From NCBI GenBank assembly GCA_013348845.1, contig CP054675.1, positions 1,063,501 through 1,127,500 of the forward strand: 64,000 nucleotides of DNA. The letters run 5' to 3'. Source of the stretch: Candidatus Tepidiaquacella proteinivora (GTDB taxonomy: Bacteria > Bacteroidota > Ignavibacteria > Tepidaquicellales > Tepidaquicellaceae). Of this stretch, positions 32,695 to 34,643 are shown in pieces; the first letter of the stretch is position 1, and each line of letters begins with the position of its first letter. Both the position numbers and the translations under genes were made by a program. The notes under the pieces were generated by a model. That model was not told the origin of the DNA, searched no databases, and was given only the letters and a program-made list of their open reading frames with translations.

Positions 32695-34487
32695 TTATTT
32701 AATTATTATCATTTGTTTTGTCTCTGAAAAATTATCAGATGAAAGTCTATAAAAATAAATACCTGAAGATAAATTATTTGCATTGAAGTTAATCTGATAC
32801 TCACCTGCCTTCATATCCTGACTAATTAATTCAGAAACAACTCTACCTAAAATGTCAAACACTTTTAAAGTTACAAATCCGTCCTTTGCGATGGAAAATT
32901 TTATTGTTGTTGAAGGATTAAATGGATTTGGGAAATTTTGGCTTAAATAATAATTATATGCTATATTTGAATTAATTTTTGTTAATAATGGTACGCTCCC
33001 TTCATCAGCACCTTTGTATGGAGCAATTGGATTTCTCAAATCATTATCGAAATCAGTTGTGATTCCACTGATAGGAGTTCCTTTTAAATTCGTATCACCG
33101 ATGGAAGTGCCGGCAAGGTGAAGATCAGTAGCAGAAACAAGGTTTACATTCGCAAATACAGTGTTTTGTTCATTAGGACTTGCAGCGGTTTTATAATCAG
33201 AAAGATTATTATAGCCGACACCACCCCAATAAGCGTGGAAACTATTTGTACCATTAGCAAAATAACAATTGTAATCAACATTTAAAACCCCGGTAGTTGA
33301 AACTAAAACAAAACCAATATGATAAACAGCACCTCCGGTTCTATAATTAATACATATATTATTTTTCATATTTAAAGTTAAACTGGAAGCTCCTATTCTT
33401 ATCCCGGCAGAAGTTGTTGCACCAGAAGTACCGCTGGTATGATTACCACCGATTCGTGTAGTATTGTAATAAATATTAGCAGTGTAAGCATTGGATCCAA
33501 GAAATTCAATACCCGTTATAGTTTGAACATTAGAGTTGTCAAGAGTATTTGAAACCATATTATTCTGAACATTAAAAGTTGAACCAGCAGCAGGACCAGC
33601 TGCATAGATACCTCTTATAACAGTAGAAGAAGAAGTTGAAGAAGATTGTAAGTCATAAATCCAATTTTTTCTGATATTATAAGTACCACCAGTCATAGTT
33701 GCCATAATTATACCGGAAACAATGGTATTATTAACTCCAACGGTTTGATAAATTTTACAGGAATCAATATTTGTACTTAATGCACCGGAAACCAACCAAA
33801 TGCCAGCATATCCCCAATTAAAAATCTCACAATTAGAGATAGTATTACTGTCATTTGGAACACTGGAAGAACCTGCAATTCCTACTCCACTTCTACCACC
33901 TTCAATTTTACAACGTGTAATAAGATTATTTGAATTACCAACTGTAGAAGAGGTTAAAAGAACTATAGTTCTTGGTCCAGCAGTATTTTGAGTATTATTA
34001 ACAGCGTGAACAAATCTGATTATATTATTAGTAGCTCCATTTGTAAGTGCTATAGTGTTAGAGTTTGTACCAGTAGTTGCGAGATTTTCAATTTTTAAGT
34101 CAGGAGCATTTCCAACTCCACCGGGTCTTCCATCAATTATAATGAAATCAGCATCATTAAAAACCAAAATACCCGAGGTAGAATTACCTGATATAACTTC
34201 ACCAGTGTTACCTAAAGCAGGTCTTAATGTAATTGTGTTTACTGCACTTGCCCCTGATTTTGCAGTAAAGGTAATTGGAAATACTTCTAAGGAACCATTG
34301 TAATCGGCAAGTATTTCTATTATATAAGCCTGCGTAATGGTAGATGGTATTGCATCATAGGCTGCCTGTATAGTATTGTGCTGACTAATAACAGCACCAT
34401 TACCATCTTTAAAACCACAGAATTTGTTTGTGATAAAGTAAAATTTGAAATGAGAAATAAAAATGACAATAAAATTAATTTTTTCAT
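32695..34487 (-). CDS. T9SS-exported parallel beta-helix protein, broken by a frameshift after the signal peptide
   Basis: The long frame (32695 to about 34419) encodes right-handed beta-helix repeats rich in Asn and Thr (ITRCKIEGG, ISNCEIFNWG, NIDSCKIYQT, MKNNICINY). It ends in a T9SS sorting domain (SQNFPNPFNPSTTIKF ... TKQMIIIK). No start codon fits in that frame near a signal peptide. In the neighbouring frame, ATG at 34485-34487 gives MKKLILLSFLFLISNFTLSQ, a perfect signal peptide. It then runs to a stop after about 54 codons, while the main frame continues plausibly from CGFKDGNGAV. One missing base at about 34420-34425 would join them. The intact product would be near 598 residues. Confidence 0.8.
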
Positions 34488-34643
34488 TGTAAAATATTTA
34501 ATTATTGGTTAGCAAAATATTTTATTTATTATAAGAAATTTTCATAGTTAAAAAAGTAAATCAGGAATTTTATAAAGATTAATTATTATAAATTAAGAAA
34601 TGATTTTATTAAATGAAAAAACCAATAGAAATGAACATAAATT

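What the first reader, a model, noticed from the sequence alone, without database searches (positions are those of the whole stretch)
34417..34487. Frameshift separates the signal peptide from a T9SS beta-helix protein
Seen: ATG at 34485-34487 encodes a perfect signal peptide in one frame, while the mature protein is open in the next frame from about 34419. A single missing base near 34420-34425 restores a full exported protein. No start codon supports export of the long frame alone. Inferred: recent inactivation, phase variation, programmed frameshifting or an assembly error.
Basis: seen in the sequence. Interest (0 to 1): 0.5.

Follow-up and report, generated by a model that had tools for sequence, protein, structure and literature searches.

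The report
Secreted-protein gene with one-base frame break
A gene for a protein that the bacterium exports to its surface is out of frame by one base just after its export signal, while the relatives compared have it in one frame; most likely this is an ordinary recent mutation or a sequencing slip rather than a new mechanism.

Summary
On the minus strand, ATG 34487 opens a textbook signal peptide. The mature T9SS cargo protein (predicted beta-helix plus type A sorting domain) is open in another frame, with no ATG/GTG/TTG before TTG 34167. In a search of 44 genomes of the order, 10 others had an orthologue; the nine that align to the junction all carry signal peptide and mature protein in one frame. 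The nearest (83% identical, collinear place) reads SQTNSVVLKDG where the window reads SQTNSVVLK|DG in two frames.
The mature frame shows no decay (dN/dS about 0.06; amino-acid rate equal to the intact sister), so the break is recent or only in the consensus. It was the only confirmed one among 81 compared ORFs, though several other T9SS genes of this genome are broken too. The tract is also the -1 slippery heptamer T_TTA_AAG, but recoding is poorly supported: not conserved, both lysine tRNAs present, weak downstream fold. Phase variation is unlikely. Low interest.

The parts
34320..34487 (-). Signal-peptide frame: 55-codon ORF, 27 residues that match the orthologues (MKKLILLSFLFLISNFTLSQTNSVVLK), 28 residues of the wrong frame, then TAA TAG
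   Evidence: signal peptides of orthologues
34407..34414 (-). Junction tract TTTTAAAG: the place of the one-base length difference from the in-frame orthologues; in the signal-peptide frame, 34413-34407 is also the heptamer T_TTA_AAG
32695..34497 (-). Mature-protein frame, stop to stop (600 codons open); homology to orthologues in this frame begins about the Asp codon at 34407-34405 (P0001 residue 5)
33100..34407 (-). Predicted beta-helix body (P0001 residues 5-440, my boundaries)
   Evidence: AlphaFold2 model, mean pLDDT 88.4; weak Foldseek matches to proteins known to me as beta-helices
32704..32934 (-). T9SS type A sorting domain (Por_Secre_tail, P0001 residues 496-572)
   Evidence: PF18962 E 3.4e-12; TIGR04183 E 3.8e-12
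34165..34167 (-). First canonical start codon (TTG) in the mature frame; use of it would drop 84 residues of P0001 and any signal peptide

Best explanation
An ordinary T9SS cargo gene has lost one base in the short T/A tract just behind its signal-peptide cleavage site. Ribosomes that start at ATG 34487 make the signal peptide and then a short wrong-frame tail ending at 34322. The mature beta-helix and sorting domain are not made as an exported protein. The loss is so recent that the mature frame has not begun to decay. The gene is patchily distributed in this Ignavibacteria-type lineage, so its inactivation is probably tolerated. Shown: the two frames, the in-frame orthologues, the tract, and the absence of decay. 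Inferred: that the base is really missing in the cells (rather than in the consensus), and that no exported protein is made.
For: Nine of nine orthologues that align to the junction are in one frame, out of the 10 other genomes with an orthologue among 44 of the order; the tenth, L020, aligns only from query residue 35 and has its own in-frame signal-like N-terminus. The same-genus orthologue lies in a collinear contig. P0001 against L011: NG86 dN 0.106, dS 1.87 (saturated); amino-acid states unique to the window 35 against 35 in its intact sister (outgroup L012, 570 sites), 24 to 20 with L013 and 21 to 24 with L014; changes concentrated at third codon positions. No match at E <= 1e-80 in the other same-genus genome G001 (reported 99% complete) or in 33 of the 44 genomes in all, with only the best 31 first-look candidates of each genome scored. 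Other T9SS genes of this genome are visibly broken: those ending at 797066, at 811979/812203, at 1582717 and 1884585, a remnant at 578847, and an in-frame TGA before 1530164. Against base-calling error as the cause: in 91,941 bases aligned in frame with G002 there are 173 runs of 6, 70 of 7 and 18 of 8 identical bases and 392 two-run A/T tracts of 7 or more like this one, and the survey confirmed no other break.
Against: A consensus error gives the same picture. No reads were available, and the one scan for another assembly returned only G002's own record (the tool warns that records of the window's genome or one very near may be left out). A mature frame without any decay is exactly what an error predicts. 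The other broken T9SS genes could themselves be errors; I did not test that. Antonov et al. (PMC3711429, section 29) expect singleton frameshifts validated by BLASTp to be sequencing errors rather than real indels. The run-length control cannot exclude one isolated error, and the survey saw only breaks at the ends of best matches, with at least 13 unaligned residues and a clear match in another frame.
Confidence: 0.48

Rival explanations
1. Consensus or assembly error: the gene is intact in the cells and the single-contig assembly dropped one base in the T/A tract.
For: No decay of the mature frame; singleton among the nine orthologues compared; the genome is one contig of 2,403,876 bases, which suggests long reads, whose errors tend to be indels in homopolymers and short repeats (PMC9600527, passages); other T9SS genes with frame breaks in the same assembly; one confirmed break per about 92 kb of compared coding sequence is within what such assemblies may hold (my judgement, not measured).
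Against: Only a T4A3 tract, while 261 runs of 6-8 identical bases and 392 two-run A/T tracts of 7 or more in the compared genes are in frame; no other confirmed break in 81 compared ORFs. The sequencing technology is not known to me.
Confidence: 0.38
2. The broken gene is still read by -1 ribosomal slippage at T_TTA_AAG (34413-34407), giving the orthologous sequence ...SVVLK-DGNG..., so that a fraction of ribosomes makes the exported protein.
For: The heptamer lies at the junction in the right phase, and slippage there would give the residues seen in the nearest orthologue. A 6-bp hairpin core, GUGCUG/CAGCAC, lies 9 nt downstream; the 47-nt fold has z -1.57 with 9 of 200 shuffles as good. The mature frame is conserved. 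U_UUA_AAG has been used as a shift site in published experiments (PMC5009743, passage).
Against: The nine orthologues are in one frame and need no shift. The heptamer occurs in phase 42 times in 353 ORFs, no different from codon shuffles (38 +/- 6.4). About 12% of simulated single-base losses near the start of the 119 other T9SS-matching open frames of this genome leave a usable X_XXY_YYZ heptamer (837 of 7,140). The hairpin fold is the best of four windows tested; the two wider windows starting at 34405 have z -0.19 and -0.07. ARAGORN on 30 of the 42 tRNA loci found tRNA-Lys with anticodon UUU and another with CUU, and Atkins et al. note, for a species with one lysine tRNA per codon, that the one expected to pair tightly with AAG should dissociate poorly (PMC5009743, passage).
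Confidence: 0.08
3. Phase variation: the tract length flips between on and off states in the population.
For: Most proteins of phase-variable genes are exposed to the cell's environment (PMC3711429, section 11), as this one would be. TTTTAAA is seven A/T letters long, and those authors count poly-AT stretches of 7 nt or more near a frameshift as a possible cause; whether a mixed T4A3 tract counts in their scheme is not clear to me.
Against: The longest single-base run is four. Two-run A/T tracts of 7 or more are commonplace: 392 in the 81 compared in-frame genes. Tandem Repeats Finder shows no array at the junction, only a weak 12-base one at 34448-34474 inside the signal peptide. Orthologues show no long tract there. 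No other of the 120 places has a signal peptide in another overlapping frame.
Confidence: 0.03

Closest known systems
Singleton frameshifted genes in prokaryotic genomes (Antonov et al. 2013, PMC3711429: abstract, sections 11, 28, 29 and passages seen)
   Same: One member with a frame break confirmed by protein similarity, in one frame in the relatives compared; expected by those authors to be sequencing error or recent indel
   Different: Nothing of substance; here the break falls between signal peptide and mature domain, so the expected outcome is loss of export
Corrective recoding of indels (Oenothera plastid atpB, PMC8254509, abstract seen; review PMC5009743, passages seen)
   Same: A single-base indel in an A/T tract of an otherwise conserved gene
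   Different: Oenothera has an insertion in an 11-A tract and full-length protein was detected; here the tract is T4A3 and no product evidence exists
T9SS type A cargo proteins (TIGR04183 / PF18962)
   Same: Signal peptide, beta-rich passenger, C-terminal sorting domain; the genome encodes a SprA match
   Different: Signal peptide and passenger are in different frames in this copy

Membership tests
T9SS type A cargo protein | C-terminal type A sorting domain | tested here: met
   PF18962 46.9 bits (cut-off 27), TIGR04183 46 bits (cut-off 23)
T9SS type A cargo protein | N-terminal Sec signal peptide on the same polypeptide | tested here: not met
   Signal peptide present but in another frame; in frame in the nine orthologues
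T9SS type A cargo protein | Type IX translocon in the same genome | tested here: met
   SprA_N PF14349 match, 151.4 bits (cut-off 27), in a 2,189-codon open frame; other components not searched
Programmed -1 ribosomal frameshift | Slippery heptamer X_XXY_YYZ in phase | tested here: met
   T_TTA_AAG at 34413-34407; as common as chance predicts
Programmed -1 ribosomal frameshift | Conservation of shift site and frame arrangement in orthologues | tested here: not met
   Nine of nine orthologues are in one frame
Programmed -1 ribosomal frameshift | Stimulatory downstream structure or upstream Shine-Dalgarno-like element | tested here: inconclusive
   Hairpin core 9 nt downstream, best z -1.57 of four windows; no Shine-Dalgarno scan was run
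Programmed -1 ribosomal frameshift | Trans-frame product | not testable with these tools
   Needs proteomics or a reporter
Phase-variable gene | Unstable simple repeat or long homopolymer at the break | tested here: not met
   Longest run four bases; no tandem array at the junction
Pseudogene by recent indel | In-frame orthologues and one frame-breaking indel | tested here: met
Pseudogene by recent indel | Indel present in the cells (reads) | not testable with these tools
   No reads; no second assembly of the species found in the one scan made

The most novel reading that the evidence does not exclude
Export of this surface protein is set by -1 slippage at T_TTA_AAG directly behind the signal peptide: a one-base loss turned a constitutive cargo gene into one whose exported dose is limited by ribosome slippage.
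Probability: 0.06. Interest if true: 0.55.

Novelty: already known. Interest (0 to 1): 0.12.

Why it matters
For annotation: the gene should be recorded as a frameshifted T9SS cargo gene, not as a 490-residue protein without signal peptide starting at TTG 34167. If the break is real, it is a fresh example of cargo-gene loss in a genome rich in T9SS surface proteins. If the rare recoding reading held, it would be a simple route by which export becomes translation-gated.

Tried and rejected
Rejected: transcriptional slippage, because the tract is short (the cases cited in PMC3711429 are A runs above 7 and T runs above 8; passage). Rejected: internal restart in the mature frame giving export, because there is no canonical start before 34167. 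Rejected: a genome-wide habit of placing the signal peptide in another overlapping frame, because only 1 of 120 places shows it; the pair 1582717/1884585 has its signal peptide in another frame too, but behind two breaks (read out for the first copy).

in the first direction (81 queries) gave four flags: this gene, two 'same frame' flags (not frame breaks by definition, not looked at one by one) and one 'other frame' flag that proved to be an over-extended N-terminus (L119). In the reverse direction (94 queries, 33,556 residues) it gave three: two 'same frame' flags and one 'other frame' flag that proved to be an over-extended N-terminus (L100 against L105).

Papers: an Ignavibacteria and T9SS sorting-domain search found none; a T9SS, frameshift, signal peptide and pseudogene search listed one comparative genome paper, which I did not open; some searches served as background, from which I opened PMC9600527 and PMC5837995 for passages. 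The YN00 estimate failed with a domain error, so only NG86 is given. The fold search gave weak matches (2 with E <= 0.001, best E 6.5e-4, low TM-scores, some LRR and Ig proteins among them), so the beta-helix rests mainly on the model and on my recall of which listed proteins are beta-helices.

The signal-peptide scorer is my own simple rule. Of its 13 misses, 332366 and 1221564 have GTG- or TTG-started signal peptides, and 898456 and 2084853 have visible ones that fail my rule of 11 uncharged residues. 1758516 has a signal-like N-terminus without a canonical start. 812203 is the tail of the 811979 gene.

Full report
What is there. On the minus strand an ATG at 34487 opens a 55-codon frame that begins with a textbook signal peptide, continues ...LSQTNSVVLK, and closes at TAA 34322-34320. 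The mature protein, P0001 (574 residues as translated from 34419), is open in a different frame from 34497 to its stop at 32695, with no ATG, GTG or TTG before TTG 34167. It ends in a type A T9SS sorting domain (PF18962 E 3.4e-12, TIGR04183 E 3.8e-12). The AlphaFold2 model (11 sequences, mean pLDDT 88.4) is largely beta strands, with a separate C-terminal beta domain. Foldseek matches are weak (best E 6.5e-4, low TM-scores); phage tailspikes, DFA-IIIase and an alginate lyase, which I recall as beta-helices, are frequent in the 50 rows shown, beside some LRR and Ig proteins, and two T9SS complex chains (8glk_D, 8gl8_D) match over 79-85 alignment columns. The genome has a SprA match and 120 places that match P0001, nearly all through the sorting domain only.

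Where the break is. The closest orthologue is in a genome of the same genus (G002; one search returned the same locus from record JAOADD010000023.1, titled Ignavibacteria bacterium SKW224) and is 83% identical. It reads SQTNSVVLKDGTG in one frame; the window reads SQTNSVVLK in one frame and DGNG in the other. The DNA alignment puts a single gap next to TTTTAAAG, 34414-34407. Eight further orthologues align to the junction and all eight are in one frame with a signal peptide. The tenth, L020, aligns only from residue 35 and says nothing about the junction, though it has its own in-frame signal-like start. In the order-wide search 11 of 44 genomes, the window's own included, have the gene at E <= 1e-80, with the best 31 candidates of each genome scored; the other same-genus genome (G001, reported 99% complete) has no such match.

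How unusual it is in this genome. I took the open frame around each of the 120 places, 119 of them from stretches fetched for the purpose. 107 had an ATG signal peptide in frame by a simple rule. Of the 13 without, only the window gene had one in another overlapping frame. Several of the others are broken in different ways: two paralogous genes in inverted 1.57-kb repeats (about 95.7% identical) lose frame at the same point with different offset, one of them again inside its sorting domain (812203); two 97%-identical copies (1582717, read out, and 1884585) lose frame twice between signal peptide and sorting domain; there is a remnant at 578847; and one gene has an in-frame TGA (1530164). These may be real decay or errors; I did not separate the two. 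In an independent survey, 81 ORFs of G002 with a match of at least 60% identity in the held DNA of this genome (30,662 aligned residues) gave one true frame break, the window gene. In the reverse direction (94 ORFs) none was confirmed. The compared DNA (91,941 bases) contains 261 runs of 6-8 identical bases and 392 two-run A/T tracts of 7 or more.

Has the gene decayed? No. Against G002, dN is 0.106 and dS 1.87 (NG86, dS saturated). States unique to the window and to its intact sister number 35 and 35 (outgroup L012), 24 and 20 (L013), 21 and 24 (L014), with strong third-position bias. The frame break is therefore very recent, absent from the cells, or bypassed.

Which of these? Recoding: the tract read in the signal-peptide frame is T_TTA_AAG, a -1 slippery heptamer that would yield the orthologous SVVLKDG. 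But the heptamer is as common as codon shuffles predict (42 observed, 38 +/- 6.4 expected). 837 of 7,140 simulated single losses leave a usable heptamer. The best of four folds has z -1.57 and the two wider downstream windows -0.19 and -0.07. tRNA-Lys UUU and CUU are both encoded, which by the argument in Atkins et al. (PMC5009743, passage) makes slippage on AAG less likely. None of the nine orthologues has the arrangement. Phase variation: the longest run at the site is four bases, no tandem array lies at the junction, and A/T tracts of this kind are commonplace in in-frame genes, although TTTTAAA may formally meet the 7-nt poly-AT criterion of Antonov et al. (PMC3711429, section 11). Error against mutation: the survey shows no other confirmed break despite many longer homopolymers, which speaks for a real deletion. 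The untouched mature frame, the other broken T9SS genes, and the published expectation that BLAST-validated singleton frameshifts are sequencing errors (PMC3711429, section 29) leave error open. Without reads I rate real recent deletion 0.48, consensus error 0.38, recoding 0.08, phase variation 0.03.

Verdict. It is an ordinary, singleton frame break in a patchily distributed T9SS cargo gene.

Noticed in passing
L067 (G000:C1:796966-812440): Two T9SS sorting-domain genes in inverted repeats of about 1.57 kb (95.7% identical) both lose their reading frame at the same point with different offsets; one has a second break inside its sorting domain.
   Followed up: partly
L085 (G000:C1:1582617-1583944) and L091 (G000:C1:1866894-1885812): Two copies of about 1.2 kb, 97% identical, of a T9SS gene whose signal-peptide frame is broken before the sorting domain; frames were read out for the first copy only.
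   Followed up: partly
L083, just upstream of G000:C1:1530164: A T9SS sorting-domain gene interrupted by one in-frame TGA (TLIG*GYTNN).
   Followed up: no
L089, gene ending at G000:C1:1758516 (minus strand): A T9SS gene with a clear signal-like N-terminus (IPIKNFIFLLVSTILTLLLISPPSYSQ) but no ATG, GTG or TTG in frame before it.
   Followed up: no
107 in-frame signal peptides of T9SS-matching genes, G000: 77 of 107 have [AGSTC]Q after the hydrophobic core, in line with the Q-rule reported for Bacteroidetes and the 77% Q-value given for Ignavibacterium album (PMC5837995, passages). The window gene (LSQ) follows it too.
   Followed up: partly
window 34407-34413: The broken junction happens to form the -1 slippery heptamer T_TTA_AAG in the signal-peptide frame, with a 6-bp hairpin core 9 nt downstream.
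   Followed up: yes
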